The translations under genes were made by a program, and so were the position numbers. 64,000 nt of DNA from Branchiostoma floridae (taxonomy: Eukaryota > Chordata > Leptocardii > Amphioxiformes > Branchiostomatidae), in the NCBI RefSeq assembly GCF_000003815.2, contig NC_049990.1, positions 495,827-559,826 on the forward strand. The letters are read 5' to 3'. The notes below the pieces were generated by a model. It was given only the letters and a program-made list of their open reading frames with translations. It ran no database searches and was not told where the DNA came from. Shown here one piece after another: positions 6,648 to 59,195 of the stretch. Numbering within the stretch: the stretch's first letter is position 1; every line of letters begins with the position of its first letter.

Positions 6648-9600
6648 ATGGAGGATTCTCTGCCTTTCCCCGACCTTGACAACGACACGACAACGACCTT
6701 CGCACAACTGTGGAACGACTCGTCGATAACTGAGGCAGATTTTGGGTAGGTATGACGAAAGGGAACGACGCATTCATGATTTTTTTTCATGACTGTACTT
6801 AGAATCTTTGTGTTGGTTTTATGTTCATGGTTTTGGTGATGACTGCTTCACCATGAACTTAACAACCGTCGCAAAGATTTTTGTTTCTATACAGTACAGT
6901 GGTGAGTGTGAACTGTGATTATCTCTCCAGTTTGTCCCGACTGCAAAATGAAAAACTTCAAACAGTAGTACTGAAAATTGAGTGTATTTGTAGGAACTGA
7001 ATTTGAAGCAAGGTGTTATCTACTATAGCCTACTACTAGTGTAGTTTCTGATTTCTGTGTAAAGAGCTTTTAGCAGGAATTGGATGGTTTAATCGTGTGC
7101 TTTATTCTACAGTTGATTTCTGTGTTAATGGCGTTTATCAGGAATTGTTTTCAGAATGCTTTATCTTATAGTGTCTTGTATCTTGTGATGACTTTGTGCA
7201 AGCTCGCTTGAGTGAGTGAGTGTATCAGGAATTGTAGTTAGAATGCTGTGCTTTGTTCTACAGTTGATTCTGTGTTAAAGTTGTACATCAGGAATTGTTG
7301 TTAGAATGCCGTGTGCTTGACTCCGTAGTGTATTTTATCAGGGATTGTTGTTCAAATGCCGTGTACTTGACTCCTTAGTGTATTTAATCAGGGATTGTTG
7401 TTCGATTGCCGTGTACTTGACTCCGTACTGTATTTTATCAGGAATTGTTGTTCGAATGCCGTGTGCTTTATTTGATAGTGTATTTTATCAGGGATTGTTG
7501 TTAGAATGCCGTGTACTTGACTCCGTAGTGTCCAGCCGTTTGAAGCAAGCCTGCTTCCCTTTTCCAGTGACATGGGGGAGTTTTTCCAGCAGATGGAAGG
7601 GAACGTACGGAACGTCAGTAACGATCACAGCTACAGCCAGCATTCCGTAAGCAATCCTGGAATGTCTGAATCTCTTTTTACACAACCAGTGGTTTATTCA
7701 TACTGACGTTTCGGTGACCGTCTGTCACCTTCTTCAGGGCAATTCTGACTGGTTCACATTGTACTGCAGGACAGGTGTCGCTGCTCACAGTTCAGATGCG
7801 GTCACAAAAAGTATTTACATATGTACAGTCAAATTTATGCAAATTATTTACAATGTTGTCCCAAACCCAAACCCAAAACGTCCATAACTGTTGTCAATGA
7901 ACCATTGGTTGTGTAAAAAGAGTCTCTTTAGTCAGTGATGTACCAACCTGATGAAACTATTCATGAATCCTGGAATGTCTGTTTGTGTGGACTAGGCCAG
8001 ACTTTACGTTGTATGATGGCTATGGCCGAGGAAAAAAATGTGTTTCCTATTTCAGGCATGGCAAGGTTTGGTTTATCAGGCCCTGTTCATAATGCAAAAA
8101 ATCAACGTTTCTATCTATTTGACCTGACAGCAAATGGTTTGCATTTTGCGTTTACAAGCAAACCATTCCAGCTCCTTGAAAAGGCATGAAGGGCTCGAAA
8201 TACTGGGTGCACCCAAAATTGGAGCTGTGCACCCAATTGTTTTCTGTGGGTGCACAGGGTGCACCCAAATATTTCTCACATTTATGTATGTAAAGATATT
8301 AAAGTATACTAATATACATCATATTCTTGACATCTAAGTGTTAGAAAGATAATAAAAATGTCTGCCATGGTACTTTTTTAAGAATTTGAAGCTTGTAATT
8401 AAGTTTTATTATTAGGTTATTACTTGAATTTAAGTGGTGCACCTAATCCCAGAAATGAATTTCGAGCCCTGGCATGGTAATGTGACCTGATGCATCTTTT
8501 CTGTACCCTACAGGACCAGTCTGATCAGGGGTCAGAAACTACAGCGATGGAGGGTCAGCAGACGGACAGGGTAGGTCTGGGGTGTTGTTTGTTTTTTTGC
8601 TTGCTTGTTTGCTTGTTTATTATCAGAAGGCAAAGGTAAGTCTGCGGTGTTGTTTGTTTACTTGTTTATTAGCAGCAGGACATATAGTAGATCTGCGGTG
8701 TTGTTTGTTTGCTTATTTACTTGTTTATTTTAGCCTGTGCCAGTGGCCCCTCAGCGACCTCTAACCATTCCCCCCTCCTGTACCCCAAAGTGACCTCCAG
8801 CCTGCCAACCTGTCAGTGACCTCTAACCTTTACCCCCTCCTGTACCCCCAGGTGACCTCCAGCGTGACCTCCGGCCCCTCAGCGACCTCCTCAGACGTCC
8901 CGTCCACCACAGTGTACCCGGGACCCTACAGCTTCCAGGTGGCCTTCCCCCCTCAGACGCTCAAACCCAAGTCTAAGAAGCTGGCCTGGACCTGGTCGGA
9001 ACCCTGCAAGATGCTGTATGCTGACTTCAACAAGGTGAAACTCCTTAGTCTGGACTTTAAGTCTTAAAGATTTTGGGACTGGCTAAATCCTAGATACTAC
9101 ATAAGCAAATGTTTCATGAATGTGATGATGTGAGAGTAATATCCTGATGTAGAGGCCTTTTTGATTTGAAACTTCATTGTTCTGCACAGGGAAGGTGTTT
9201 GTTGAACTTCTGTCTGGATTGTCTCCAGTTTTTCTACTTGAAAATTAAATGTCAGATATGTCCCTTCAACTTAATGACAATGTTTAACTCCTCTAAAGAA
9301 GTTCCCCTCCCATCTCTAGTTGTTATATTTAAGAATCTCTCTACCGTCTCCGGATCTGTCCCTTCAAATTAAAGACAATGTTAAACTCCTCTAAAGAAGT
9401 ACCCCTCCCATCTCCAGTTGTTGTAATGAAGACTTTCTCTCCCATCTCCAGTCGTAATTAAGACTCTCTTTCCCATCTCCAGATCTGCCCCTTCAACTTT
9501 AAGACAATGTTAAACCAACTCCCATCTAAAGTTGTTTTTATTAAGACTTTCTCTCCCGTCTCCAGTTGTTGTACTTAAGACTTTCTCTCCCATCTGCAGA

Positions 9601-12600
9601 TCTGTCCCTTCAACTTTAAGACGGTGCGCCCCCCTCCCGCTGGCTGCCTGATCCGCGCCATGCCTGTGTACCTGAAACACGAGCACATCGGCCTGCCCGT
9701 TAAGCGCTGCCCCACGCACCGCGAGAACGACTTCAACAACGCGGACCCGCCGGCACACTTCCTGCACTGCCAGGGGAAAGCTGTGGAGTACCGCGAGGAT
9801 CCCACCACGGGGAGGCACTCCGTCATCATCCCCTACGAGCATCCGCAAGGTTCGTTCTTAGCTTCCCGACAACGTTCTGATTGTTTTAACGAGCTTAACT
9901 ACAGAAGCTATGGATGCTTGCAAGATTTACTTCCTGTTTTAGACATCCCGTATGAACATCGGCAAGGTTTGTTGTTGTTGTAGCTTCCCAAGAAGGTTCT
10001 GTTTTCAGGGCGGTTTGTTGTTTTAACTCAAGCTTACTTTGAGAAGCCGTGGATGGATCCATGTCAGATTCTGTATGTGGGTAGGGGTCAGGAAAACAAA
10101 GGTCAAGTTCAATAAGCAGCTTTCCTAACAGCTTCTTATGGTACTGCAGCAGGACTTGTGTTTTTGAGATTTTGTGTTTTGGACATGCCATGGTCCTGAT
10201 TGAGTGTGAGGCATGTTTATTGTTTGTTGCTTTAAGCTTCTTTTTCATATCGTTATCTCTCTTTCGCATTAGTTGATTAGTTCATGTGTTGCAGTAGAGA
10301 CATTTGTTTATTGTTTGTTTATTATTTGTTTGTTTACAGCGGGTACGGAGTGGTCGACCGTCCTGTACAAGTTCATGTGTCTGAGTGGAGACATTTGTTT
10401 ATTGTTTGTTTGTTTGTTTGTTTATTGTTTGTTTACAGCTGGTACGGAGTGGTCGACCGTCCTGTACAAGTTCATGTGTTGCGGTAGAGACATTTGTTTA
10501 TTGTTTGTTTATTTTTTGTGCTACAGCGGGTACAGAGTGGTCAACCATCTTGTACAAGTTCTTGTGCGGCAGTGGAGACAGTTGTTTATTGTTTGTTTGT
10601 TTGTTTGTGGTTTACAGCCGGTACAGAGTGGNNNNNNNNNNNNNNNNNNNNNNNNNNNNNNNNNNNNNNNNNNNNNNNNNNNNNNNNNNNNNNNNNNNNN
10701 NNNNNNNNNNNNNNNNNNNNNNNNNNNNNNNNNNNNNNNNNNNNNNNNNNNNNNNNNNNNNNNNNNNNNNNNNNNNNNNNNNNNNNNNNNNNNNNNNNNN
10801 NNNNNNNNNNNNNNNNNNNNNNNNNNNNNNNNNNNNNNNNNNNNNNNNNNNNNNNNNNNNNNNNNNNNNNNNNNNNNNNNNNNNNNNNNNNNNNNNNNNN
10901 NNNNNNNNNNNNNNNNNNNNNNNNNNNNNNNNNNNNNNNNNNNNNNNNNNNNNNNNNNNNNNNNNNNNNNNNNNNNNNNNNNNNNNNNNNNNNNNNNNNN
11001 AAGGGGTTTACTGTAGGGGGCTATCTGAGGGGGGCATCCTGAGGGGGGGGGGGGTTCTGTTCTATCAAACCCATATGACAAACCATACTAGCATGTTCTT
11101 ATCCTAATTCATACCGGTAATTTTTTTATTATTCATATTGTATCATTGTCACATTCTATGTATTTCTTTATTATTTATCAATTGTAATCAATTTTTTTAA
11201 GTATAGAGGGGGAGGGTTAGTATAAGCTTTACATGCCTTTTCTACCCTCCTGCACCTGTTTTATCTATTGTTAATCACATCGTGTATCATGTACTTGTGC
11301 ATATAAGTAAACAATATACGACTATGTGTTCCTTTTCCCCCAGTGGCGCAGTCTTGGGTCGTCAGGCCGTGAATATCAAGATCTGCTCCTGTCCCGGACG
11401 AGACCGAGAACAAGACGAGGACGCGCTCCTTCCGCAGCCCGCACCTGGGTCGAAGAAACGGCTGATGACAGGTAACGTCTGAGAAACATCCGAGGAGATT
11501 TTCAATGTCTTGTTCCTTTGTGAAGGCACTTCAAGAAAATGGTGACAGGTGGCCACTAGAGTACCTGGGATTTTTAGTGCTGGGAAAGATAATCTAAAGC
11601 ACCACCGAAATGCAAAACAGAAAAAATATATAACTGCAAAAATGGTCACATGTACAGGTTTTGCTCAGGAAATACAAATGTTCAGTCCATTTCACACAAA
11701 CCCTCAGGCATGTCACTGATTTATCTTCCTGAGTCTTGAAGTCTCCCTGACAATGTGACACGCCTTTCTTCTCCCAGACTCCAAGACGTCTCAGAAGAAA
11801 CGTAAGAAGACCAGCGTCACCAGCAGTAGCAACGGCGTGGCGCATGACGGGGAGGTTTTTAATGTTCACTGGCAGGTAAGATTACACAAACAAACAAATA
11901 GACAAAAAACAAGAAAACAATATTGGGTCAGGCAGACAAAATATTTCAGCAAAACAAGAGTCCAACAGTTGCAGAAGAAGAAAGTGAAATGAACTGAATT
12001 GAAAATTGAATGTTTGAGGAACATGTGATATGACTTGGCACTAAGTGCAGTAATTTTTTGTATCATTTGAATTTTCCAGAGGTTTTGTTTATTGGTATTG
12101 TTCCATGTTTATTTTATGCAGAGAACCAGAGTTTATTTTGTATGGACATTCCATGTTTATTTTGTGCAGAGGCTCTGTTTATTTTAAGCAGAGCTCCCAA
12201 GTTTATCTTGTGCAGAGGCTCTGTGTTTATTTTAAGCTGAGTATGCGAGCTTATTTTGTACGGAGGTTCCATGTTTATTTTGTCCGTTTCAGATCCGCGG
12301 CAGAAAGAACTATGAGACACTGCTGCGGGTGAAGGAAGCTCTGGAGGTGCAACACCGGTGTGAGACTGACCCGCAGGTCACAGCACTGTGAGTGGAGTCT
12401 TTCTTGAGGGTTTGCATGGGGGGGTCCTGAAAACACTTATGCTAAATTCAGGAGGCTCACAAATGTGTTATGCTAAAAGTGAGAAACGCAATTAATTACT
12501 CAAAATTTGGCCACTTCACATTGAGTTGTAGGGAAAAGATTATCATAGGAAAGTAGAGCTGGTTGGCTTCGTCTTACATGGAAGGGCCATGAAGGCTGGC

Positions 12601-14900: not shown

Positions 14901-15153
14901 ATTCCTCATGTTGTCTGATGATTTTTACATTTTGTTTGTACACATGTACTTGACAGTCTTTTATTTATACTACCTTGTTGTATTGTGACCAAGGCTTTTT
15001 GTTAAAATATGATTTCTGCGTCAAAGTTTGAAAAATGTATCTTACAAAGTAAGGCTGTAAACTGTACTATGATACTAGCTTTTCCACATATTGTTAAGTT
15101 TAAGTTGAAGATACAAGTTTCTATGTTCATTGTAAGATAGTCTTTATGATATT

Positions 15154-15812: not shown

Positions 15813-18800
15813 ATGGCGCATGTGACTGGCGATTGGAACCCGCTGGGCCAGGTGTTTTACAGGTCAGGTATTTCTACACGGCTACGTCACGGGCACAAGC
15901 TGCATGTGAACTTGAGAAGTAGTATCTTAGCTTGTAGGAGAGGTGCTGGAGCTGTTGTTATGTTGCGGGAAAAAAGGTTTTCAGACGGCCTACTTCGGCC
16001 CAAGGCAGACCCACCCTCCCGAACAGATCATCTACAGTGTATGAGACCATGTCTAGGGGAGAAATAGACGTTAAACAAGGACCAGAACAACGGATTTCAC
16101 AGTTGTACAAACAACACAGCACCTGGAAATATATCTTGATAGATAAAGTAAAATATAAGTAAGTGCATGCAACATACTCACTGACTCTAATACTCTGGAA
16201 CTAACGTTACTATTAAGGCCGCCGACTTCGACCGTAGTTGGCATGGTATCAAGGTACTAAAGATGGAAGAATGAATGTGTGTGTGTGTCTGTGTGCATGT
16301 GTGTGTGTGCGAGTCCGTGTGCGTGCGCGAATGTGTGTGCTTGTGTATGTGTGTGTGTGTGAATGTGTGTGTGTGTGTGTGAGTGTATAAATGTGTGTGT
16401 GTGTGTGTTTTGTGGGTTATTATTATCATGACAAATTATCTACACTAGTAATCTGTTACATGCAGGAAGTGCTTTGCCCCACCCTTATTGATCAGTAACT
16501 GTTTTATATTGTCAGGGTAATCTAGTATCTACACTTGTGAATCTCTTATTTCTACATGTAGATATCAGGTATATATTCCCCCACCCGATGATCAGTTTAT
16601 ACTGTTCTGAAAGCTGAATTTCCCGTTTCTGACACCAGGAAGCAGGAGATCTACTCCATGGGATGGCGCGACATCGACCTGGACAAGTTCGTGGTCGCCG
16701 CGGCGCCGTACGGCGGGCCGATCGCGCTGATACGGGACGAGACTAAGCTGGTGCGCGTACAAGGCAGCATCCGCCCTGTTATCTACATCTACACTTCCTC
16801 TGGCAGGGAGATCTCATCTATACGGGTAAGGGGAGGGAGGGAGGGAGTTTGGGGGAGTGAGTGAGTGAGTGAGTGAGTGAGTGAGTGAGAGACAAAGCTG
16901 GTGCGCGTACAGGGCAGCATTCGCCCTGCCATCTACATCTACACCTCCTCTGGCAGGGAGATCTCGTCTATACGGGTAAGGGGAGCGAGTGAGTGAGAGA
17001 CGAAGCTGGTGCGCGTACAAGACAGCATCCTCTGACAAGGATAAAATTCTGATGGGCCAGGGATGCTGTGGCCTAGTGGAACAGTAGTGATGTGATGAAC
17101 TCTGACCTGTTTCCATATTTGCCCAGTGGAACAGTGGTCATATGATGAACTTTAACCTGTTTCCTTATTGCACAGTGGAACAGCGGCCATGTGATGAACT
17201 CTGACCTGTTTCCTTATTTGTCCAGTGGCCATGTGATGAACTCTGACCTTATTCCTTATTTGCCCAGTAGAACAGTGGCCATGTGATGACCTCTGACCTT
17301 ACTCCTTATTTGCACAGTGGAACAGTGGCCATGTGATGACCTCTGACCTGTTTCCTTATTTGATGTGGCCATGTGATGAACTCTGAACTCTGACCTGTTT
17401 CCTTATTTGTCCAGTGGAACAGTGGCCATGTGATCCACCTGGGCTGGTCCTGCAGCGAGGAGCTGCTGTGTGTGCAGGAGGATGGCAGCGTTCTCGTCTA
17501 CGACATCTTCGGGCAGTTCAAACGTACCTTCAGCATGGGCACCGTGAGTCGACTCGGTTTATGTCTATGTTTTTTTTTTATAAAGAGGTCTAGAACCCTG
17601 GCTACTTGTGTTGTTGATATCTATCTGTTTTATTTGCCGGGACTTTATTTCGTTGTAGAAGAAAAAATCAGTTTTTACAATGTTTTTGCATTGAGAAAAT
17701 TCTATAGTGCATGTTGAAGTAGTACATGAATTTGCATTGTCAGGAATTTGCAGCGGAGACGTCACATTGAAAACTGATGTTTTTTGCCGTTTCCCTCTGC
17801 AGGAAGCGAAGGAGATGAAGGTGCGAGACTGCCGCATCTTCAACAGCCACCAGGGCACGGGGCTGGCGGTCATGACCAGCTCATACCGCATCTTCATGGT
17901 CAACAACGTGGACGAGCCCCGCATTCGCAGGATGGCCGACGTGCCAGGTAGGGGAACAGCAAGGGGAGATCCTGGGGGTACAAGAACATTGGTGGGAGAT
18001 ACCGAGGGTATGGGAACAGTGGTGGGAGATCCCGAGGGAAAAGGAACGGTGGTTGGAGATCCCGAAGGTGTTGGAACAGTGGTGGAAGATCTGAAGGATA
18101 GGAGAACAGTGGTGGGAGATCTGAAGGGTAGGGGAACAGTGGTGGGAGATCCCGAGAGTGTGGGAACAGTGGTAGGAGATCCCGAGGGAACGGGAACAGC
18201 GGTGGGAGATCCAAAGGGTATGGGAACAGTGGTGGGAGATCCCGAAGGTGTGGGAACAGTGGTGGGAGATCCCCAGGGTATGGGAACAGTGGTGGGAGAC
18301 CCGAGGGTATGGGAACAGTGGTGGGAGATCCTGAGGGTATGGGAACAGTGGTGGGAGACCCAATGTTAACTGCAAAATGCATTTTAGAGCTTATGTTGCA
18401 CATTTTAAGCAAGAAAAAAAAGAGAAATTAGTCTTGTGTGTGATTTTCCGTCCCTGCCAGGTCTGGACGCCCCTCCCAGCAGCTGGGTGGTGATCTCCCA
18501 GGACCGACAGTCCCGCGTGCTGCTGGCGCGGGAAAACGATCTGTACCTGCTGGACCACGGCGGGCAGTACTCCAGACAGGTGGGTCTATTTGTCCATTCT
18601 GTTGATGCATGTTTCCCATGGTACCAGAAACCAGACGGGCAAAGGGTCGGGAGGTGAGAGGAAGTACAGTTCAGAGTTAGAAGAATTAGTCATTTATCAA
18701 CCTTGGCTGCCAGACATTCCTGCAGAGGTAGAGGCACACACAGAGATGGCCGCGTGTTTATTTGTTTACTTGTTTATCTGTTGTCCCCAGCTTGCCCCAG

Positions 18801-21800
18801 TAAGCCAGCAGGTCGAAGCGTACACAGAGATGACCGTGTGTTTGTTTGTTTGTTTACTTGTTTATTTGTTGTCCCCAGCTTGCCCCAGTAAGTCAGCAGG
18901 TACAAGCGTACACAGAAATGGCCGTGTGTTTGTTTGTTTACTTGTTTACTTGTTGTCTCCAGCTTGCCCCAGTAAGCCAGCAGGTCGAAGCGTACACAGA
19001 AATGGCGGTCTCCTTCAACAACAAGTACCTGGCGCTGTTCACCAACACGGGGCTGCTGTGGATAGGGTCATCCGATCTGGAGGTGCGTCGTTTTGTTTGT
19101 TTGTTTGTTTGTTTGTTTGTTTGTTCGTTTGACATAACTGTTGAAAGCTTCTTTCCTAAAACTACATCTTTATGGGACTTCCTCATGATTGCTTCCCTGA
19201 GGGGTAAAGCCTTAATGTTTTTGAGTTAAAAGTGAACAAACATTTGTCATCACAATACAGTACAGTAACACAAAACATTGGAGTGGTTCTTAGATCTTTG
19301 TTTTGTGCTAAAGCTGAGGTAAATGAAAACGAAAAAAGTGCCTTTAGGCATGACACCAGTTTTGTACGGAAGTTACAAGCTGTAAGACTGGACTGTAAGG
19401 TTTGATCCACTCACACTGGGAAGGGCCCCCGTACTCTTTTTTATACATTTTAGTATAATGGTGGGATCTTTAAATGTTAATGTGCTTGACGTGTGGCTCT
19501 CCTCAGAGATGGGCCTCCAGCTTTTAACTTTATGTCTGGTCCAATTTTCCTGGGTTGAATGAGAAAATAGGTGTTAAGTGCTTTCTGAAGGTCACAACAT
19601 TTGGGCCTGCTTAGGATTTGAACCCAGTACCTTTAGATTTTAATTCAGGATCCGGGAGTCCAGCATTCCATCTACATGTAAAACATTTAAAAAACACAGT
19701 GGATGGATGTCAACAATATTAGACTTGGGATGTTTACAACGTTAGACTCGTCAGCAGGCTATCCTTACCTTAGATCACAAGGAAGTAGGTTAGTCACGAC
19801 TTTGACAAGAATTTTATTAGCTCTCTTGTTCTAATGGATGCGCTGAAGCTACAACCAGCCTTTGGTGTAACACATTGATATTGTACACAGTATCATACAT
19901 TTTGTGAATGTTTCTAGTGTTGAGGTTTTGTGTCTTTGATCCCCCAGAGAGCGTACTGTGAGTTTGATACCAAGTGTCCGCAAAGACCCAAACAACTGGC
20001 ATGGTGAGTACTCACTACATGTATATATGGTTTCCTTTAGTCAGTATTGACCATGGTAAAATCCTAATTGATATCAGCCTTACAGCATTGGCTGTGGCTA
20101 AACAGTCCTATATGAGAATCACACCTGTCTCACCTGTCCATTGTTCCACAGGTGTGGTACAGGTGCTATAGTAGGTTACTGGGAGAACATACTGCTGATG
20201 GTGGGCCCAGGGAAGGACTATGTGAAGTATAACGTAGACAGTACTGTGCACCTGTCTCACCTGTCACACCTGTCTCACCTGTCCATTGTTCCACAGGTGT
20301 GGTACAGGTGCTATAGTAGGTTACTGGGAGAACATACTGCTGATAGTGGGCCCAGGGAAGGACTATGTAAAGTATAACGTAGACAGTACTGTACATCTGT
20401 CCCACCTGTCTCACCTGTCACACCTGTCACACCTGTCCATTGTTCCACAGGTGTGGTACAGGTGCTATAGTAGGTTACTGGGAGAACATACTGCTGATCG
20501 TAGGCCCAGGGAAGGACTATGTGAAGTATAACGTGGACAGTACTGTACACCTGTCTCACCTGTGTCACCTGTCACACCTGTCCCACCTGTCTCACCTGTC
20601 ACACCTGTCACACCTGTCCTTTGTTCCACAGGTGTGGTACAGGTGCTATAGTAGGTTACTGGGAGAACATACTGCTGATGGTGGGCCCAGGGAAGGACTA
20701 CGTTAAGTATAACGTAGACAGTACTGTCTCACCTGTCACACCTGTCTCACCTGTCTTACCTGTCCTTTGTTCCACAGGTGTGGTACAGGTGCTATAGTAG
20801 GTTACTGGGAGAACATACTGCTGATGGTGGGCCCAGGGAAGGACTATGTGAAGTATAACGTGGACAGTACTGTACACCTTGTCCCAGAGCTGGACGGACT
20901 CCGCATCCTCAGTAACTACAGCCACGAGTTTCTGCACAAAGTTCCCAGTGAGTAAAACCAGACTTGTTGAACTTCTTGTGTGTGTGTATGTCCGTGCAAG
21001 GTCACAGCATTTAAACCCACTAGGGATTTGAACCAAGAACCTTTGGATTCCAAGCCAACAACCCTAAACACTAGGAATGGGTACCAGTACAAAACCATTT
21101 TTTCTTGTGGGACCGGTAAAGAAAAACGGACCTGAAAAAAATCAGTGGACTGGATGTAGGACTGATTTGAAAATGAACAGATTATATTGGCAGGCATTCA
21201 TGTGTTTTGGAGCTTATGGTAAAAGGAAAGATCAAGAGCGAAGTAGAGGAGAGTTGATGGCCATTTTTCCAGAGCTTCTATGGTCAGTTAGTGTTGTTTA
21301 CATGAAGGTCAATTCCTGGCTGTGCAGAGAGAGTAGTTGCCCCACCCATTATACATAGAAGAATGATTTGCAGCACTATTCCAATGCTCTGTAGGTTTTT
21401 TAATGGTTTCAGTTTCTAGACTTAAAATAATAAAACATTGTAGACTTCTAAAGTGGCAGATCTAAGCATTGCAGTGTTGAGTCTGTATTATATAATAATA
21501 ATAATATATCATTTACACCCTCTTCTTCGGTCAGTGTTGTGAAGTGTGTGTTTAAGATGGGTCCATCGAGCCAGGTGCCATGCTGTATGAAGCCTCCAGA
21601 GAGTTCCAGGTGTGCTATATTATATTATATACAGGTGCGGTTAGATGCTGGAATCATTGTTAGACCTTCCCCCGAGTAACTTAAGGTGTAATGAAATTAA
21701 CACATTTGGCAAGAGGATACATTCTTAGCAGCTACCTGCACCTACACTGGTCCATGTACTGGGTTTATATGGCAAGATTAGTATGTGTGGATAAGTTTGT

Positions 21801-24800
21801 TTGTTTGTGTGTTTATTTACAGAATGGGAGTCCGAAGAGTACTAGTATGTGTGGATGGCAGATGAGTATGTGTGGATGGGTTATGTTTGTTTGTTTATTT
21901 GTTTGTTAACAGAACGGGAGTCCGAAGGCAGACGAGTACATCCGGATGATCCAGGACCGGCTGCAGGTGGCGGTGGACCAGTGCATCCAGGCGGCAGGGT
22001 GTGAGCACGAACCGACGACGCAGAGAATGCTACTCAGGGTAGGTACAGCCTTGGTACAGCCTTGGTACAACCACGCAGAGGATGTTACTCAGGGTAGGTA
22101 CAACCATGGTACAACCATGGTACAACCATGCTATAACCTCAGTACAACCACACGCAGGCGGCGGGGTGCGAGCACGAACCGACTACACAGAGAATGCTGC
22201 TCAGGGTAGGTACAACCATGGTACAACCTCAGTACAACCATGGTACAACCACACACAGGCGGCGGGGTGCAAGCACGAACCGACCATGCAGAGGATGTTA
22301 CTCAGGGTAGGTACAACCTAGGTATAACCATGGTACAACCTCAGTACAACCAGGGTACAACCATCCAGGTGGCGGGGTGCGAGCACGAACCGACCACCCA
22401 GAAGATGTTACTCAGGGTAGGTACAACCATGGTACAACCTCCGTACAACCTCAGTACAACCACACAGAGGATGCTGCTCGGGGTAGGTACAACCATGGTA
22501 CAACCTTGGTACAACCATCCAGGTGGCGGGGTGCGAGCACGAACCAACGACGCACAGGATGTTACTCTGTAGTTGTCTTTTTTTCAGCTTATGCATGTAT
22601 GACACATGTTAGTTTAGACTGAGATTGTTCATTTTTTACTGTTAATTGTTGTCGATTATGTCTTGATTACTTTCCCTCCCTCCCTCAGACCGTGTCATTC
22701 AGGAAGTGTTTCCTGAGCAACATGATTGATTATTTATTGATTATTGATTCTTTTCCAGGCAGCATCATTTGGAAAGTGTTTCCTGAGCGACATGAACCCG
22801 GAACCGTTTGTGCGGATGTGCAGAATGTTGCGAGTGCTGAACTCGGTCCGAGACTTCACCATCGGGATCCCGCTCTCCTGTGCACAGCATCCTTGTTCAT
22901 AGATACTTACAACACATAAATACACACATAGATACCTGGTCACAGTATCTTTCTTTTTAATGTACTTACTTCCTCACACACATAATACATACATACATGC
23001 ACACATAGATACTCACAGGCCGAGACTTCACTATAGGGATCCCGCTCTCCTGCGCACAGTATCCTTCATAAATACACCACAAATCACAAATACACATAAA
23101 TACACACACAAATACACACACAAATACTTATAATTCATAATACAAACATAGATACCCATAAATACACTTATAAATGCACCTTTGACCCTTTACTGATGTC
23201 ACACTTCCATTCTGGATGTGTGACTTAGTAATTGGGTCATTTCAACTTGAGAAGGATCAGAGGACTGATAGAAAGCTTGTTTGTAAGCGCCTTATTTTGT
23301 GTACGGATATAAAGTCTTAAAATTGTAACATGAGCACCCATAAGTACATACATAATTCATAAATGCTCCCATAAGTACATACTTTGTCAATGAATGTTGG
23401 ACATCCAAGTAATAAGATACACCAAACAATAGTTACTCAAGCAAGTCGGGATATGATTGTCCAAAATTATTATCCAGTTGCTTGAGTAACTATTATTTGC
23501 CATAACTGATTGATAGTTTTGTTCAGTTTGTGTTAAAACCACATGATGTCCACCTTAACCCCCACCCAGACTGGAGCAGCTATCCATGCCAGTACTGACA
23601 GACAGGTGAGGAGATCTTGTCTTTTCTTGGTTCCTTCTGTAGATGTTCAGTACTGACAGATCATGTCTTCTCTGTGGCCCTACTGGAGAAGCTGACAGTT
23701 TTTTTTTTAACTGTGGTAGAAATGATTCAGGCAAAGTTGAACTGTGACAGCTAAACACAAAAATTAAACTGACACAAATTTTTGACTGACCAACTCCATT
23801 CTTTAAGTTGTAGATAAATGAGGAATCCACCGTTTCTGTGACGTCACTTTATGCAGACAGAAGAGATATTGAAAGCATTTTGTCCACTTATAGTGCACAT
23901 CCAGTCTCCTGTGCCTTCAGTTTTTCTGCCTCTGGAAAATGATCACCTCTGCTATACATACCCATAATGACGATACCGTACCCTTGTTACCAAAGGTATT
24001 TAGTTAGTTGTGCCACTAAAAAAGCTCTTAGCTTGAGTACGGCACCACTGCGCATGTATTTTGTATCTTGAGTTTTTATGCCCCACAGACTGGTCCTGAG
24101 AAGACAGTACCCGCTGGCTATCCGCATCTGCCAGTACCTGAAGATGCCGGATGCTGAGGGTGTCAGCCGCATCCTGGCACACTGGGCCTGTTATAAGGTA
24201 TGCACAAACAAACAAACAAACAAATAAACAACTAAACAAACAACCTGGTCTATAGGACCACACATCCTCATGCACTGGATCTGTAATAAGGTATGGACAA
24301 ACAACATACATCAGAGTTAAAGTGAAGTAAACTTAGTGTTACAATGTTAACTATCTCTCTCCCAGCTTTCAGGTGAAGTGTTGAAAGTTTCATGTGGAAT
24401 GCCAACTGTCTGTCCAGTTAAGGGTGAAGTAAAAGTGAGTGTTCAGAGTAAGAACACTGTCCAGTAAAGGATCTGATATAAAAGCTCCTTGGTAAAACTC
24501 TTAGTGTTGAGAGTCAGAACGTCACATGTACAATGTCGACAGTCCCAGCTTTAAGGTGAAGTGTTGAAAGTTTAATGTGCAATGCCAGTTGTCTGTCCAG
24601 TTAACGGTGAAGTAAAAGTGAGTGTTGAGAGTAAGAACACTGTCCAGTTAAGGGGCTGATATAGAAGCTCCTTGGTAAACTCTTAGTGTTGAGAGTAAGA
24701 ACGTCAACCATCCCCCCCCCCCAGGTGCAGCAGACACCACGTGACGATGGNNNNNNNNNNNNNNNNNNNNNNNNNNNNNNNNNNNNNNNNNNNNNNNNNN

Positions 24801-36330: not shown

Positions 36331-36960
36331 TATTTAGAGTGCCCTATTTTGAACAATGATGACCATTGATGTAAAACATTCTCCAAATTGCAGTTTGAAC
36401 AACTACAACATAGACAGGCTACATGGACTGAAGCTTGGTTCAACAGTGGATCCGACATTGTCAAAAAAACAATTTATCCAACTTTTCAGCTGTGGGGTTA
36501 AAACTGTCTTCAAACATTTTTTTACACTTTACAGTTCTTTTTAATACAAGGCCGTTTGACCACTTCTTTGCAATGAACTGAATTGATGGATGGTGGAAAT
36601 TATCATGCTAGAAGATAGCAGTGAGCACTGTTTTCAAGGCCTGAACTTTTGACCATTGTGTAAACAGTTGTCATCAAGACAGTGCCATAGTTTGGCAGTA
36701 CAAATCCTTTTTATTGTCATTTATGTATACATCTTATTTCATTTATGTATGCATCTTATTTCATTTATGTAAGCATCTTAAGGGTGGTCCCTTCTGTTAG
36801 TTTAACTGATTTTCAAGGGAGCCCTTTAATGCAATGCAGACAAGCCAAAAGCAACACTTGAAACACTTTAACCAAACATTACCGGATCCACAGCTGAACC
36901 ATTCTGCACTAACCTCTACCGACACAGAGTTACTACGGTTACAGCTAGTCACCCGTCGGG

Positions 36961-38387: not shown

Positions 38388-38418
<31 letters not shown>

Positions 38419-44400: not shown

Positions 44401-47400
44401 ATGAATAAGAAAAGATACTGAAAAGTAATTCTGAAATTCTACTAATAAAGTCAACTTAATTATACATTAACAAGGAAATTGGAAGAGTGTTCCAAAAGAC
44501 TTAATATTGGAAGACATGGAACATTTAGATAACATCAGTTCTAATTTGTCCTTCAAGAAAATTTTGAAGTAAAGAAAAAAGATACTGAAGAATTGTTTTG
44601 CTGCAAATCTACCAATAAAGTCTATGCTATCATAAAGTAAGAAAATTGGAAGACTGTTCCAGAAGACTTTTGATTGGAAGACATGGAACTTTCAGGTATA
44701 AAGCAGTTACAATTTCTCCTCCAGGATAATTCTTAAGTGAAGAAAAAAGAAGAGTAGTTTTGCCGATGATGTTTTATCAGGTGAGGACTGGATCTTACCG
44801 TGTCGACGGCCTCAAAGGGCTGGGTCATTTCCTGGTCTTCGTCTACCCCCACCCTGCGGAAAAATGGGGACATGTTAGCTTCTAATAAACAAACAAACAA
44901 ACAAACAAACAAACAAACACAAGGGCTGGGTCAGCTCCTGGTCCTCGTCTACCCCCACCCTGCGGACACATGGGGACAAGTCAGCTTCTCATGAACAAAC
45001 AAACAAACAAACAAACAAACAAACAAACAAACACAAGGGCTGGGTCAGCTCCTGGTCTTCATCTACCCCCACCCCAAGAATGCAAGCAAAGTACTTGTAA
45101 AGTACAAGAACAATCAAACTTTCATTTCCGTTGTGTAAGTCATACAAACAAAGCAACTCTACTGTCAGAGGTAACTAGACAAGCCAACGTTGCCATGGGA
45201 ACGCACCTGATTTTGAGCCAGGTCAGCATCTGGAGGGTCAGGCTGCCACAGAACAGCACCGTAACCATGACGATCATCAGTGTGGTCGTGAACATCAGCT
45301 GTCTCGCCTCCGACGACGTGCTGCGGATCGCCAGCGCGAACGCCACCGCACCCCGTAACCCTGGAAACAACAGAAGTTACCATGGCGACGGTTAGAAGGG
45401 GGTAATTTGACACTGAAACTGCTGTCCCTTGTGCTGAATGACATTCAAACTGACACTGCTGTCCCTGTCTCTGGTGCTGAATGACATTCACACTGACACT
45501 GCTGTCCCTGGTGCTGAATGACATTCACACTGACACTGCTGTCCCTGGTGCTGAATGACATTCACACTGACACTGCTGTCCCTGGTGCTGAATGACATTT
45601 CCACTGACACTGCTGTCTCTGGTGCTGAATGACATTCACACTGACACTGCTGTCTCTGGTGCTGAATGACATTCACACTGACACTGCTGTCTCTGGTGCT
45701 GAATGACATTCACACTGACACTGCTGTCCCTGGTGCTGAATGACATTCACACTGAAACGTGCAACATTTACACTAACCTGAAAACATCATCATATTCTGG
45801 AAGTTGAAGTTGATTTTCTGATGTCGCCCCAGGTTTAGCAGCAGGGTCAAAGGGTAAATGTTACACATCCTGCCCAGTCCGATGGCAAGCTGGGGCAAAG
45901 GTCAAGGAACATGCCAATTGTCTTGTGGGGGGAGACAAGATATAAATTCCTCTACTTTGTTACTATGAAGTTTGAACTCATTTGACAGAATTTTGTTACT
46001 TATATACATGCAAACACCAAACTTATGTACTTAGAATACTGACTTTACAAAGAATATTGTTTTTGATTACTATTCTGTCCATGTCAAATCCTCAATTCTA
46101 TTTGTACTGTCTTTGTCTTTGTCAGCAGGGCTAGCCATTCATAATATTATTGATAGTCTAGTTAGGCTAGGTCTGAACAGTCACATTGGTGAATTGTTAA
46201 ATGAATGAATGAACGAATGAATGAATTAAAAAATTTCAGGCTGTCCTAAAGCTTTCAACTTACTGTATTAAAAGCGATAACAAATTCAGTCATCAACCAA
46301 ACTATCAATCAATCGATCAATTAATCAACCTATTGATTGGTTGCATTAGCTGGTGTGTTACGCCAATGGGTAGTTATATTGGCTATATGGATACAGATAC
46401 AGAATCAATGGATCAATTAATCGACCACTGTAAGGATACGAAAGCGGCTGAGATGAACCCGCCCTTCCACTGGTGGTGCTGGAAGGTGAAGACGGACACG
46501 CCCATGTAGGAGAAGATGAAGTTCTCAGCCAGGAAGTTAAGGAGCTCGAACAGCTGCTTGGTGCGCGCCTTGGACTCCTCCGACAGGTTGTTGTAGGTGT
46601 AGTGGGCCTGGGTGATGCCGCAGAACAGAACAGCCACAATTCCTGCAGAGAGGTAAATAAGGGGTGATGCCGCAGAATAGAACAGCCACAATCTCTGCAG
46701 AGATACCGCAGAATGAAAAAGCCACTATTTGTCCAGAAGGAAGTGTTCTCCCCAAGAGCGCCCTGCTGTAGCACCCCCTGTAATATCTGCTATAGCACCC
46801 CCTACTCACCAGTCATGCCCAAAGCTTCTGCCATTTGGAAGGTGCTATAATATAAAACATTAGGTAGAACATACACATCTCAAGAAGAGAGTATTCTCCT
46901 CAAGACCCCCCTGCAGCCCCCCCTGTAGTACCCCCCCCCTACTCACCCGTCATGCCCAGTGCTTCTGCCATGAGGAAGGTGCTGTAAGACATCAGGAAGA
47001 ACATACACGTCTCCAGAAGGGGGTGTTCATCCCAAGACCCCCCTGTACACCCCCCCCTGTAGTACCCCCCCTACTCACCAGTCATGCCCAGTGCCTCTGC
47101 CATGAGGAAGGTGCTGTAAGACATCAGGAAGAACATACACGTCTCCAGAAGGGGGTGTTCATCCCAAGACCCCCCTGCAGCCCCTCCCCCTGTAGTACCC
47201 CCCCTGCAGTACCCCCCTACTCACCTGTCATGCCCAGTGCCTCTGCCATGAGGAAGGTGCTGTAAGACATCAGGAAGAACATACACGTCTCCAGAAGGGG
47301 GTGTTCATCCCAAGACCCCCCTGCAGCCCCTCCCCCTGTAGTACCCCCCCTGCAGTACCCCCCTACTCACCTGTCATGCCCAGTGCTTCTGCCATGAGGA

Positions 47401-50400
47401 AGGTGCTGTAAGACATCAGGAAGAACGTGCACGTCTCCAGTAAGGGGTGTTCATCCCAAGACCCCCCTGCAGACCCCCCGCCCCTTGTAGTACCCCCCTA
47501 CTCACCAGTCATGCCCAGTGCCTCTGCCATGAGGAAGGTACTGTAAGACATCAGGAAGAACATACACGTCTCCAGAAGGGGGTGTTCTCTGATCTTGGTG
47601 AATTTGGTAAGGTGAGGGAGGGAGTTAAGGAGAATGGACTGAAGTGAACAGAGACTCTAATTCAACAATATAACCTCTGCTAACAAAGCCACATTCTTAT
47701 AAGAACATACCTAGATGAAACAAAGGAACAAATAGAATTGTACCGCTACAAAACAAGTTTTTTTTTTGTAACTACTTCCCAATTTTTACATTTATCTCTG
47801 CAATAATGTGTATGTGGCTTTGAATGGCACAATTTATAGGTTTGTGAGCAAAACATGTATAATTTTGTTCTTGGGGCTTAATTTTTTTTTTAAGTCAAAA
47901 AAGGCAATTCCGAGAAGCAACAAATAAAATTGGTGTTGCCTAACAACTGATAAACAAACAAACAAACAAACAAGCGGCTGTGAGTAAGGATATGACAGCG
48001 GTGAAGCAGCCCATGACGGCTCCTATCCCGAAGGATCCTGCGAAGATGCCCAGGAAGTTCCCGAAGGCCGTCAGGAAGGCGATGCCGTCGAACGCCTTGG
48101 TCGTCTTCCCGTAGCCTTCCACCGTTCTGTGTTAAACAAAGGGGAAAATAAACAAACAATTAACGCATGGTCATCTTACCGTAGCCTTCCACCGTTCTGT
48201 GTTACACAGGAGGAAAAAGAAACAAACGATTAACCAAGGATTGATGTATTCAAACCAGGGCTCTAGCCAGCGTCCGTTTTTCCGTCAATTGACGGAAATT
48301 TGCTGCATGTGACGGAAAATTTTTAAAACCAATCCGTCAACCTTGATGGACAAAAATCTTTGGTGGAAGCTGCAGGGGGCTTGGGGATGCCGTAAAAGCC
48401 ACACACTGTTTGTTTTACTATTGTTATGATTGTTGACAATGTGTGTCGGCGCCCTTTCGCATATGATAATCTCATTAAAAACCCGTTTTTCAAGGTCTCA
48501 GTTCAGTCTCTCTAACTCATGGAACAGTGTTTTCGCGACAATGGGAATTGGCTGACGGAAAAAAATTTTGAGCTGGCTAGAGCCCTGATTCAAACAGTCG
48601 TACTTTTCTTAAAACCAAGTACAGTACTTAGGAGCATGTTTACTAGATAGCTTCAAACAACATTTGCAGATAGATGTGCAAAGGTTTGGTGTGATAAGTC
48701 GTTCAGTGTAATATAACCAGCTGCTGCCACGCCACTTGCCTCCAAAGCTGGTGTTTTATGCCAAAGGGGAGTTATACTGGCTACACAAAGACACAAAATG
48801 AAACTGTGCATTTTTCACTGGTCATAAGGAGAAGGACAGTCACAATTACTGTGACTTATTCTTCCACCAGTCTTTAGAGGAGATTGAAATATGTAGAAAA
48901 GAAAGATAAATGTTCCATCCAATGCTTATATGACTTTTGTAATATAATATAAAAATCAATTAAATGATATCATTATATATGACAAGATAATTGATATGTT
49001 TTAAGCTATGTATAAGAGGCACAATTTAGGCCTGACTGCAATGTACGTATCTTTTATCAAACGGCTTACCGGTCGCAAAGACACTCTACCCACTCCTGAA
49101 ACTTTGCTGTACATCTAGATAGATAAAATGAGCATGAAGTGGTTGGACTTACGAGGACAGAATGATGGCCACGGCGTCGTTCATGACGCTCTCTCCGAAC
49201 ACAAGCGCGTACAGGTCCACATCCACGTGCATGTCGTGAAAGATGGCCAGCACCGTCACTGCAACACAGACAAGGGAACTCATTAACGAGGGGAACTCAT
49301 TAACGAGGGGGAACTCATTAACGAGGGGAACTCATTAACGGGGGGAACTCATTAACAAGGGGAACTCATTAGAACACGAGCGCGTATAGGTCCACATCTA
49401 CATGCATGTCGTGAAAGATGGCCAGCATCGTCACTGCAACACAGACAAGGGGACTCATTAACGAGGGAACTCATTAACGAGGGGGAACTCATTAACGAGG
49501 GGAACTCATTAACGGGGGGAACTCATTAACAAGGGGAACTCATTAGAACACGAGCGCGTATAGGTCCACATCTACGTGCATGTCGTGGAAGATGGCCAGC
49601 ATCGTCACTGCAACACAGACAAGGGGAACTCATTAACGAGGGGAACTCATTAACGAGGGGAACTCATTAATCAGGGGAACTCATTAATGAGGAGACTCAT
49701 TAGAACACGAGCGCGTACAGGTCCACGTCTACGTGCATGTCGTGGAAGATGGCCAGCATCGTCACTGCAACACAGACAAGGGGATTTAATAACAGAAAGT
49801 ACAGTAAGCACATCATTACTGGACAGCTATCAACAACATTCACAGTCAGAAGTGAAAAGGTTGGGCGTGACGGGTCCTTTAGGGTAATATAACCAGCAGA
49901 CATTGACTGACCAATCACAGACATCATGTGACACTGACTGACCAATCACAGACATCATATGACATTGACTGGCCAATCACAGACATCATGTGACATTGCC
50001 TGACCAATCACAGACATCATGTGACATTGCCTGACCAATCACAGACATCACGTGACATTGCCTGACCAATCACAGACATCATGTGACATTGACTGACCAA
50101 TCACAGACATCATGTGACATTGACTGACCAATCACAGGCATCGTGTGACATTGCCTGACCAATCACAGACATCATGTGACATTGCCTGACCAATCACAGA
50201 CATCATGTGACATTGCCTGACTAATCACAGACATCATGTGACATTGCCTGACCAATCACAGACATCATGTGACATTGACTGACCAATCACAGACATCATG
50301 TGACACTGACTGACCAATCACAGACATCATATGACATTGACTGACCAATCACAGACATCATGTGGCATTGACTGACCAATCACAGAGATCGTGTGACCTG

Positions 50401-53400
50401 GACTGACCAATCACAGACAACTCACCAGGGTCAGTGGCTGAGATGACAGCACCAAAGAAGAGGCAGTCGACGAATGAGAAATCTATCTCTGCGGCTGCAC
50501 CAATCAGCACGAAGGCATACATCACAGACCTGGGAGGGGAGAATTTGCATTATGATCATGCACATCACATTACAGTGATATCATGTAATTGATTCATTAA
50601 TACCAAAACTAACAAGCATAATTTAGATAAACAAGGGTATATGTATGCAAAAATACAATCTAGAGGTCGAAGAGTAGACATTTATTTTGACTTATTTTTC
50701 CCCAAACTATCACACTATGTTGTCATCTTTTCCAGTTAATATTTCCTATGCACCACTATTTTCTCCTTAATCACATCCAGGACTGATAGTGATAAGATGT
50801 GCCATGCCCATATTAGGCAGTGCCAGCCCCTGGGGGGTTATGGGAAGTGTTCCAGGAATTGCCAATGTTCTGCAGTGCAGCAGATTCCGGGACACATGCC
50901 AGGAAACATGCCAGGAAACATGCAGGCTTGGTGGGGGGGATGGAAGGGAATCTCGATTTCTGTCACTTCCACTTTGATAGATTTTTCAATGTGCAAGATT
51001 TTGATATTTTTTTTCTACTTTTTACAGTCATGGCATCAAGCACTGGTCAACACAGAAACATTGAGTGAATGATAAAATATTTCCATTTCTGGAAGTGGAA
51101 GTACGGAAAAAAATGTAGTCTAAATTTCGGGCAAATTAAAAGTTGGTTCGGCAAGTAGATTCGGCAAGTAGATTCTTAATGTATTTTCCCAATAGGACTA
51201 GACTTGGTGAATTTTAGAAAACTTGTCCAGCCCTGTGCACTATACGTGTGTGTAGCAGTAAGGAAGATGATGATGATGATGACTCACCCGACGATGAAAG
51301 TGGACACGGCCGTTCCCAGGAACGCATAGGTCAGGATTCCGCCGATGTTGCGGAAAAAATGTCTCTGTAACGCAGGGAGAAGTGTAGTCAGTAAGCATGC
51401 TTTTAGCCAAGTTGGCGTTTACGCGTCATTTGGATGCACTAAAATAACAGGAAATTCGACGCACTACACACCCTTACACTGGGGAGCAGATCCTCTGACA
51501 AGCATCAAATTCTGATTGACCAGGAATGCTAATGAGTCAATTGTGGTCAGTCTTCTACTGTGATCTCTCTGACAGTAATTTTGCCCCTCAGGATACCTTA
51601 TAATGCACCATTTTAACTTAAAATTCTCAACAACTCCTACAATAGTCAAGCCATATCACTTGCTTAAAAGTAGCTAAAGGTATCTCCACGACAATGTCAT
51701 TTATAGAAAAAAAGTCAGGCTTGTTTGGAATCATCCAAGACAATGACCTTCACCCTATGCCCTTGACCCCATGCCCTTGACCTTGACCCCATGCCCTTGA
51801 CCAATGACCTTGACCCCATGCCCTTGACCCCATGCCCTTGACCCCACGATCTCCCTACCTTCTTCAGCGAGTAGCCTGCGTGGAAGATGATAGGCGGCAG
51901 CAGGATGTTGAAGAATATTTCTGGGTCAAAGGTCGCCTGCGGAAGGGAAACACAACAGTGGGCATAAAATACTGCAAGCATCTCATGTCAAACATGTACC
52001 GAAAATTATACCACTTTAGGGTTCTCTCGTCTCGGGTGGGTCGTTAAATGGAGGTCCCGTGTTTGAGGAGAGCCACACCTCCCGCACATTAAAGAACCCA
52101 CCATACTTATCGAAAAGAGTAGGGGTCCTTCCCGGTTTGAGAGGATCAACCCTACAGTTCTATGGCCGCACCTGGGGCAATGACTGTCGTATTGAGGTCA
52201 CCTGAGTTTGTGCCGAATGCCAGCCGCTCCAGACCCTTGTTATTTAACCCTGTCTATTGTAAGTTGGTGTTTAACATCTGAAGCTGATTTAGAGGTGATG
52301 CGCCTAACTTGGGGGCCCAAACATGCATCACTTCTTCTTCCTTACATCACAAGCTACCTGCCACTAAAAAATGGAAGTTCTGCTGCAGTACCAAGGTCAC
52401 AAACCTGGGGGCACAAAGCCAACTTGACCTTTGTCCAACCCCTATCCACATACCAAATATCATCGTAATCCATCAAGAGGTTCTTGAGTTATGCTGACTA
52501 CAAAAATCCAGACACATTGACACATACAGACACGCAGACACAGACACACGAAAAACAATATCTCCATTTTCATGGCAGTAACAACTTTAAGTATAATGTC
52601 CAAACCTTGCATGTACTTTGAACTTTGAACTGTGCACAAACCTTGCTGAGTTCAGGGTTCACGACCTGCACCTGGTGCTCCTGGTACGGGCCCTGGTTGG
52701 AGAACAGGTATTCTCCCGCGCTCACGTTCAGCACGATGTTGGCGGGAGGCTCCCCATCGATGCTGCTGACCGGGACGATTTGCGAAACCGGCTTCTGCGG
52801 AACGACTTCATTACTTGTGTAGCGAATGATGACTCCGACGATCAGGCCTACAACAAAGTAATAATTACAGAATATGCTTTATTAATGGTGATTATGAATA
52901 AACAAACTTGCTGGGGGAACAAGAGTGGAATTGAGCATAAAAGTTCACTTGTGTTGGTAGGTACTAATAACTTAGTACGGCCTCCGGTGATACGGGATAC
53001 ACAGTGTTATATTCTATAATATGTAGTGCAAACATATGACTACATGAGATGTATAACAATGTGTGTACATGGAAGGTTCTAAAATCATTGATTTCTGCTC
53101 TGTATGGAGATTTCAGAGTAAAAGATATATCTATTGGCATTTCTTTCATTTGTATAATTGTAATCTAATGTTATACCTGTTATTGCTATTTCTGTGAACA
53201 TCTCTGTTAACTACACATCTATCAGCAATGAAGTCATGTCTTATACTGGTATCTACACTAGGGGTGTACTGTTACAAAACCGTTTTTTCTTTGTGGAGTT
53301 GTCCAGAAAAAACGGACCTGAAGAAATCAGTGGACCGGATGTTGGACCGATTCGAAAATGAGCAGATTATACCGCCAGGCGTCCAAGAAAATAACAAGAA

Positions 53401-58300: not shown

Positions 58301-59195
58301 TTATGATCCACTGTTCATCAGGACACGTTTGCTATCTGCACGATGTGATGAGTCAGAAGCAGTGGATTGTTTATTCCTTGATGATGACTGGAGTTGATCT
58401 GTCAAACATTTTGGTCCAATTATTTATGTCAGCAATTTCATTAGATAAAATTTGTCAAATTTGATCTTGAATTTTGTCTGTATTCTCGCTGGATCAAAGA
58501 TGAAACTTCTGAATACTTCTGAAATTTCAAAGGTGAACTTTCAAGTAGAGGACTATGACAAATTTGGCTTCTGTGCTGTTTATGTCAGTGCAGACTGCCC
58601 TAATCATCTCCTCTCATCTGAAGCCCCAGACTGTAACCTGATATGTCCGTTCTGTCCTGAGTCCCAGACTGTAACCTGATATGTCCGTTCTGTCCTGAGT
58701 CCCAGACTGTAACCTGATATGTCCGTTCTGTCCTGAGTCCCAGACTGTAACCTGATATGTCCGTTCTGTCCTGAGTCCCAGACTGTAACCTGATATGTCC
58801 GTTCTGTCCTGACGTTTGTTTCTCATGTTGCACAGGTGCATCTGCAAGACGGATCAGACAAGCTGCAGACCATCGCTGACGGGATCGTGGAGAAGTTCGT
58901 TAGCGCGGGACTAACGGAGCGAGAGTACGACCGCGTCAAACTCCACGCCACCGCCATGAATACGCTATTCCGCAGAGACCCGAGCGCCAGCCCCGACAAA
59001 ACCGACAGAAAGGCTGCTGGGAAGGGGCGGCCGCTCAAGGACAGGGAGTCTTTCGATGCTCGTAACGTCTTGGAGATCTTCGGGGACTTTCACTTTGGCA
59101 AGACGGATTTGAACTCGATACACCTGTCCGAGAGGTTTTCCTCGGACAGTAAGACGGGATATTATAACTGCGCAGCGTTTGTAGAACTCACATGA
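55372..59195 (+). CDS. ASCC1: ASCC1, KH plus 2H-phosphodiesterase-like protein of the ASC-1 complex
   Basis: Subunit of the activating signal cointegrator complex, linked to transcription coactivation and alkylation repair. Four exons: 55372-55780, 56723-56839, 57260-57483, 58836-59195, all in matching phase, giving 369 aa. The start MDVLRPELLWIDGRCYRKN fits the family N-terminus; an in-frame ATG 33 bp earlier (55339) is less family-like. An acidic stretch (about 31-42) precedes a KH domain (about 68-135) with GKKG loop at 85-88. The C-terminal AKAP7-like domain keeps both histidine motifs, HLTL (H189) and HATA (H287), and GVEYMNDDP. The 581-N gap lies in intron 1 and costs no coding sequence. 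Confidence 0.96.
55841..56421. other. Assembly gap in ASCC1 intron 1
   Basis: 581 N after a G-rich run. The frames drawn through it are meaningless. Confidence 0.95.
56445..56722 (+). repeat. 27-bp acceptor-like minisatellite before ASCC1 exon 2
   Basis: About nine copies of cccattgctgttctccagga plus aacaaa, each holding a ctccagga or ttccagga acceptor-like core. The true acceptor, attttccag/gaag, reads like the last unit. Confidence 0.9.
57495..57615. repeat. ATTCT-type pentanucleotide repeat
   Basis: Imperfect (attct)n with attctg variants right after the ASCC1 exon-3 donor. Confidence 0.9.
57934..58284. mobile_element. hAT MITE, second copy (inverted relative to 48256)
   Basis: Ends CAGGGCTCTAGCCAGC and GCTGGCTAGACCCCTG. 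Internal ttccgtcaattgacggaaaa is shared with 48256-48587. No clear target duplication. Confidence 0.8.
58625..58812 (+). repeat. About 40-bp repeat before ASCC1 exon 4
   Basis: Five copies of cccagactgtaacctgatat plus gtccgttctgtcctgagt. Confidence 0.95.

What the first reader, a model, noticed from the sequence alone, without database searches (positions are those of the whole stretch)
6648..58835. Splice junctions seed tandem repeats in all four genes
At well over a dozen exon boundaries the splice site plus part of the exon is copied 2-22 times into the adjoining intron. On the acceptor side: p53-family exons 4, 5 and 6, VPS16 exons 3, 6, 8, 10, 11, 19 and 22, exchanger exons at 49258, 48126, 46642 and 44853, ASCC1 exon 2. 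On the donor side: p53-family exons 3 and 5, VPS16 exons 2, 10, 11, 13, 19 and 20, exchanger exon 47506. VPS16 exon 17 gives whole pseudo-exons. Repeats normally avoid exon edges, so this recurrence suggests a mechanism acting at splice junctions (for example R-loop, lariat or nick-related slippage) or tolerance of decoy sites. Amphioxus intron minisatellites have been reported; I cannot check whether this exon-edge bias has been described.
Basis: partly seen in the sequence, partly recalled or inferred. Interest (0 to 1): 0.9.

Follow-up and report, generated by a model that had tools for sequence, protein, structure and literature searches.

The report
Splice-site copies in a lancelet repeat hotspot
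In one stretch of what looks like a lancelet chromosome, exon edges with their splice signals have been copied tandemly into the neighbouring introns dozens of times; such 'mirage' repeats were already known from single lancelet genes, but here they are packed into a local hotspot and fall on exon edges more often than chance.

Summary
The structures match 'mirages', minisatellite-like duplications of intron-exon boundaries already reported in lancelet Adh3, globin, troponin C and PGBD5 genes (PMC3087553, PMC3902484, passages). (2) It is regional: in 46 homology-chosen segments elsewhere 1 of 222 splice edges has a copy and arrays are about 14 times rarer. (3) Of 122 copies with an aligned boundary, 121 keep AG/GT and 108 would break the reading frame if used. 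Best reading: a local tandem-duplication hotspot with a real excess at exon edges, filtered by selection and tolerated because the splice pair closest across the exon is used. The cause of the excess is unknown; splicing was not observed.

The parts
17071..17434 (+). VPS16 exon 3 acceptor array, 50-bp unit x7.5; genuine exon starts 17415
18738..19006 (+). VPS16 exon 6 acceptor array, 84-bp unit x3.2; exon starts 18963
20119..20879 (+). VPS16 exon 8 acceptor array, 145-bp unit (with nested CACCTGTC 9-mers); exon starts 20778, 4 upstream copies
22018..22518 (+). VPS16 exon 10 donor array, 55-101-bp unit with nested 11-mers; exon ends 22038, 5 copies downstream
26290..27099 (+). VPS16 exon 17 (26290-26394) and 7 downstream copies of its 3' part plus donor, 82-bp unit; the unit also holds an internal CTTCCAG, so the copies are pseudo-exon-like; copy donors score lower than the true one (six at 2.8, one at -0.4, true 6.3)
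29105..29459 (+). VPS16 exon 19 acceptor array, 119-bp unit x3; exon starts 29373
29526..29980 (+). VPS16 exon 19 donor array, 33-bp unit, 12 decoy donors, in frame and stop-free; exon ends 29542
30739..31636 (+). VPS16 exon 20 donor array, 40-bp unit x22; exon ends 30759, 21 decoy donors all with GT
32414..32848 (+). VPS16 exon 22 acceptor array, 112-bp unit x3.9; exon starts 32776
9255..9622 (+). p53-family exon 5 acceptor copies (exon starts 9600)
   Evidence: P53 domain
10302..10631 (+). p53-family exon 6 acceptor copies; genuine copy not in the assembly (N run 10632-11000)
44815..45074 (-). NHE last modelled exon (44853-44799) acceptor array, 114-bp unit
46600..46730 (-). NHE exon at 46642: one diverged acceptor copy (18/24)
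46798..47587 (-). NHE exon ending 47506: donor array, 146-bp unit, 5 downstream copies
48098..48234 (-). NHE exon at 48126: one acceptor copy, 70-bp unit
49197..49784 (-). NHE exon at 49258: three acceptor copies, 174-bp unit with nested 17-mers
49899..50419 (-). 31-bp array abutting NHE donor 50426 by 7 bp without including the exon
17964..18358 (+). 30-bp array starting 16 bp after VPS16 exon 4 donor (17947), exon not included
30207..30642 (+). 86-bp array ending 21 bp before VPS16 exon 20 (30663), exon not included

Best explanation
These are lancelet-type 'mirage' minisatellites in a local tandem-duplication hotspot (about 0.49-0.59 Mb on contig C12). Short segments (17-183 bp) are tandemly duplicated at an unusually high local rate, founders fall on exon edges about 2-3 times more often than uniform placement predicts, and selection keeps those whose copies sit on the intron side and do not contain a complete exon. 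Splicing tolerates the decoys because the acceptor and donor closest together across the exon (the innermost pair) are used, as exon definition predicts. Shown: the copies, their direction, intact decoy sites, the excess in this region, the contrast with elsewhere. Inferred: duplication by slippage or template switching, often beside short repeats; selection; innermost-pair choice. Unknown: why edges and why this region.
For: Arrays and edges. Genes by Pfam: Vps16_N/C, P53, Na_H_Exchanger, AKAP7_NLS, HIRAN and RING. Edge excess 21/36 vs 7.27; HLTF alone 9/14 vs 2.24, p 1.5e-5, or 8/14, p 1.6e-4, with edges exactly as first chosen. Regional: copies at 26 of 86 evaluable edges in the three genes (13/37 VPS16+67, 4/20 NHE, 9/29 HLTF) versus 1 of 222 elsewhere; 36 arrays in 43.7 kb of gene span versus 10 in 170.6 kb. 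Short tandem repeats within 100 bp of edges 27/90 in the hotspot versus 4/223 elsewhere (partly the same arrays). Decoys: 121/122 intact dinucleotides, 108/122 frame-breaking if used. Closest-pair rule across exons in long introns: PMC9225289, abstract only. Same structures reported with undisturbed splicing in Adh3 and globin genes (PMC3087553 passages).
Against: No RNA data: which copy is spliced is inferred from exon continuity. The edge excess outside the hotspot is 1 of 10 arrays against 0.39 expected, too few to tell. Much of it could be inflated if exon-bearing copies stay recognisable longer: doubling every chance gives 14.3 expected against 21, p 0.005; at 2.5 times, p 0.07. The 36 arrays lie in one region and are not fully independent. 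Slippage or template switching was not tested by breakpoint analysis. Array sizes may be wrong: N runs lie beside arrays at 10632-11000 and 55841-56421.
Confidence: 0.72

Rival explanations
1. Pure chance in a repeat-rich, compact region: duplications land anywhere, and edges are hit because exons and introns are short; selection removes the rest.
For: Expected overlap is already about 20% per array; the window is repeat-rich throughout (21% of evaluable positions have a copy).
Confidence: 0.1
2. Detection bias: the exon side of an edge array is held constant by purifying selection, so edge copies stay recognisable up to twice as long as intron-only copies.
For: Could give up to about two-fold excess in principle; old arrays (match <88%) show 6/14 vs 1.9; pooled exon parts differ less than intron parts, 6.1% vs 8.6%.
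Confidence: 0.2
3. Splice-junction-targeted mutagenesis: transcription or splicing intermediates (R-loops, lariats, nicks) seed duplications at exon edges.
For: Excess at both donors and acceptors, and arrays that abut edges without including them: 26 of 36 include an edge or lie within 20 bp, 12.8 expected.
Against: Nothing ties it to transcription; edges sampled elsewhere rarely show it (1/222); short repeats beside edges are an alternative trigger.
Confidence: 0.15
4. Subtelomeric minisatellite zone: the window is 0.5 Mb from a contig end.
For: Position C12:495827-559826; flanks L009-L012 also repeat-rich (L009 is 74% N). A weak trend: 2 of 10 end samples against 0 of 8 readable internal ones had any copy, p 0.08 as computed with two all-N controls scored zero.
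Against: Ten 600-bp samples at 0.5 Mb from the left end of other contigs: 0 of 10 over 5% duplicated (highest 4.95%), versus 45 of 104 pieces of the window.
Confidence: 0.1
5. Assembly artefact (false expansions).
For: N runs beside arrays. In other lancelet genes array sizes differed between assemblies (PGBD5) or were misassembled in the draft (globin BflGb6) (PMC3902484 and PMC3087553 passages).
Against: Copies have diverged by several per cent in most arrays, with different nested repeats; PGBD5 repeats were upheld by re-examined Sanger and new Illumina data (PMC3902484 passages).
Confidence: 0.05

Closest known systems
Lancelet 'mirage' minisatellites (Adh3, globins BflGb6/BflGb9, troponin C, PGBD5)
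   Same: Tandem units spanning an exon-intron boundary, both donor and acceptor side, decoy AG/GT present, copies in the intron
   Different: In the passages seen, reported gene by gene; here more than twenty lie in a roughly 100-kb stretch, with a count against chance, a comparison set and a decoy-consequence count
Intron gain by tandem genomic duplication (e.g. potato RdRp, PMC4974935; search listing and start of abstract only)
   Same: Tandem duplication that includes splice-site-like sequence
   Different: Here the copies enlarge an existing intron; no new intron is made
Tandem exon duplication
   Same: Exon sequence copied in tandem
   Different: Only 15-105 nt of the exon with one splice site is copied; no array holds both edges of a modelled exon

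Membership tests
[quoted passage not shown]
   21 of 36 arrays include an edge; 24 edges with aligned copies
Lancelet mirage minisatellites | Both 5' and 3' boundaries affected | tested here: met
   Of 24 edges, 11 acceptors and 13 donors
Lancelet mirage minisatellites | Unit length of tens to about 160 bp | tested here: met
   Edge-bearing units 33-174 bp; published 10-72 (Adh3) and 150-160 (globins)
Lancelet mirage minisatellites | Found in a lancelet genome | tested here: inconclusive
Lancelet mirage minisatellites | Normal mRNA despite the copies | not testable with these tools
   No RNA data; reading frame joins without the copies in VPS16 exons 1-6, 10-11 and 15-22
Lancelet mirage minisatellites | Copy-number polymorphism, somatic instability | not testable with these tools
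   Single assembly
Intron gain by tandem duplication | A new intron arises between the duplicated parts | tested here: not met
   In VPS16 the copies lie inside introns that already separate frame-joined exons; age of the introns was not tested
Tandem exon duplication | Whole exon with both splice sites repeated | tested here: not met
   None of the 36 arrays holds both edges of one modelled exon

The most novel reading that the evidence does not exclude
A domain-restricted mutational process prefers exon edges: in certain chromosomal stretches tandem duplication is raised more than ten-fold and is drawn to splice junctions, seeding large reservoirs of intact decoy splice sites.
Probability: 0.25. 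Interest if true: 0.8.

Novelty: new member of a known kind. Interest (0 to 1): 0.52.

Why it matters
The arrays form a natural test of splice-site choice: over a hundred near-identical competitor sites, nearly all intact and mostly damaging if used, at known distances from the true site. If the edge excess holds genome-wide it would point to a duplication process tied to gene structure, and it bears on proposals that mirages feed intron gain. The regional clustering makes both questions testable.

Tried and rejected
Rows were picked by eye as lying in fetched DNA; some may have been missed. The myosin and TCP1 loci are the 30 best matches each; ten kinesin stretches were picked by eye. Of these 124 rows one lay outside fetched DNA, 10 were dropped for stops or an intron inside, leaving 113 exons. 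Segment L081 was left out of all rates because I saw its copies in the hit list before choosing it.

Subtelomere idea: not supported, 0 of 10 (2 of the 10 internal controls were all N). CACCTGTC 9-mer pattern: five exact matches, all in the VPS16 array, so no use as a marker. Selection to destroy decoys: no sign of it. Decoy sites kept better than neighbours: not significant, p 0.13. Exon as a conserved master copy: no consistent per-array difference. Microhomology at breakpoints: considered, not measured. p53-family and ASCC1 were left out of the formal test because N runs and uncertain edges make their models unsafe. VPS16 exons 12 and 14 were not found (exon 14 probably in N run 24751-25351). 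The start of VPS16 exon 9 and the ends of NHE exons f and h used were set by hand and are approximate; no array is scored on them.

The 24 edges were chosen because they have copies; VPS16 donors 2, 11, 13 and acceptor 10 were left out. Reading phases were entered by hand. In one search the HLTF h14 acceptor was set one base off (so 30 of its 250 dinucleotide cells are at the wrong bases) and was corrected. In one search the h14 acceptor and h6 donor were mis-chosen and were corrected for after the arrays had been seen; with the edges as first chosen HLTF is 8 of 14, p 1.6e-4. The VPS16 exon 17 array is counted as not including the edge because TRF starts 48 bp downstream, and the HLTF exon 15 donor array lies outside the gene span used; both omissions lower the count.

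Full report
Check of the observation. TRF lists 122 rows in the window. Gene models came from open frames, splice contexts, recall of human homologues, and Pfam (Vps16_N, Vps16_C, P53, Na_H_Exchanger, AKAP7_NLS). VPS16 exons 1-6, 10-11 and 15-22 join in frame without any copy. A junction counted as copied if a 24-bp window across it had a place within 800 bp at 20/24 identity. By this rule VPS16 has copies at 13 of 34 edges (three further edges have none), the exchanger at 4 of 20 (5 at 18/24). None of the six ASCC1 edges tested has a copy. The exchanger is of the NHE6/7/9 type by recall, not by a call.

More than chance? Array founders were placed at random in genes collapsed to one unit per array. 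In VPS16, NHE and HLTF, 21 of 36 arrays include an edge with at least 6 bp on each side; 7.27 expected, none of 200,000 simulations as high; 26 include an edge or lie within 20 bp, 12.8 expected. HLTF is the fair test: it lies right of the window (L010-L012, fetched before its genes were known) and gives 9 of 14 against 2.24, p 1.5e-5. One acceptor and one donor of HLTF were corrected after the arrays were seen; with the edges as first chosen it is 8 of 14, p 1.6e-4. HLTF identity rests on HIRAN and RING matches and SNF2 matches at C12:573126, 582950 and 583695; the name is by recall.

Is it general? Not in what was sampled. In 46 segments chosen by homology (myosin, TCP1, kinesin; 170.6 kb; 113 exons kept over all 47 segments, L081 excluded from rates) 1 of 222 edges has a copy, and intron or other non-exon positions have copies at 2.2%, against 21% of evaluable positions in the window. 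TRF finds 10 arrays there, 1 on a known edge against 0.39 expected, 1 more within 3 bp: 0.06 per kb against 0.82 per kb in the three genes. These families may not stand for all genes. Mirages do occur elsewhere: kinesin locus L081 has a clean three-copy acceptor array, and SNF2 hit lists show repeated same-range matches at C7:20251213/20251939 and C14:1.919-1.921 Mb (read by eye, not fetched). By eye no clear pair stood out among the listed 142 myosin, 60 TCP1 and 35 adaptin matches, though two adaptin matches at C6:10580705 and C6:10581035 overlap in range and were not resolved; such lists miss short copies. Distance to the contig end does not explain the hotspot on the small sample taken.

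Anatomy. Edge-bearing units carry 15-105 nt of exon plus the adjoining intron, and no array holds both edges of one modelled exon. Intron parts are often shorter tandem repeats themselves: (TTTG)n, 9-, 11-, 14-, 17- and 22-mers. TTTG/ACAA runs stand at 0.5-1.1 per kb here and 0.13 per kb elsewhere; short repeats lie within 100 bp of 27 of 90 edges against 4 of 223.

Decoys. Over 24 edges chosen because they have copies, 125 copies were aligned. Mismatch at the splice dinucleotide is 7 of 250 (30 of these cells one base off), in the exon part 305 of 5025 (6.1%), in the intron part 287 of 3341 (8.6%). Of 122 copies with an aligned boundary 121 keep AG or GT; 14 would keep the frame without a stop (12 of these in VPS16 exon 19), so 108 would break the protein if used, with phases entered by hand. 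That acceptor copies lie upstream and donor copies downstream is best seen in the two-way search; p53 exon 4 is the one unclear case. Copies score much like the true site in most arrays; exon 17 copies are weaker. Position, not strength, must then decide. Carranza and colleagues report that in long introns the sites closest across the exon are preferred and in short introns those closest across the intron (PMC9225289, abstract); the arrays sit where the former rule protects the gene.

Prior art. [quoted passage not shown] not held), with undisturbed splicing, length and somatic instability, unclear mechanism and an intron-gain model. PMC3902484 (passages) adds PGBD5 and troponin C. In the rows listed by searches (one search showed 20 of 69 papers, 15 of 195) I saw no genome-wide count of edge bias or regional clustering; most subscription papers are absent from the library.

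Verdict. The structures are known in kind. What is added is their density here, the test against chance with an independent gene, the contrast with other loci and the decoy counts. The cause of the edge excess remains open; detection bias could account for part of it but, on present numbers, not all.

Noticed in passing
L011, L012 (C12:569827-589826): HLTF carries ten further edge arrays by TRF, among them 17 decoy donors after the VLSNWI exon and 15 decoy acceptors before the YFREG exon.
   Followed up: yes
29526-29980: 33-bp donor repeat of VPS16 exon 19 is in frame and stop-free, so using any of 12 decoy donors would keep the frame (inserts mostly multiples of 33 nt).
   Followed up: partly
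36013-36331: Perfect 159-bp tandem pair holding TGTTCCAG and an open frame, possibly an acceptor copy of an unmodelled exon.
   Followed up: no
37597-38131: 22-bp array x24 at 97% identity outside the modelled genes.
   Followed up: no
10632-11000 and 55841-56421: N runs beside arrays; the genuine p53-family exon 6 copy is missing from the assembly.
   Followed up: partly
L081:874-1288: Kinesin gene on C2 with a three-copy acceptor mirage, 151-bp unit.
   Followed up: partly
C7:20251213-20252052 and C14:1919161-1920600: SNF2-family exons with repeated same-range matches in the hit list, likely mirages.
   Followed up: no
L048:2251-3186: 67-bp array x14 near a TCP1-family exon on C19, not on a known edge.
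   Followed up: no
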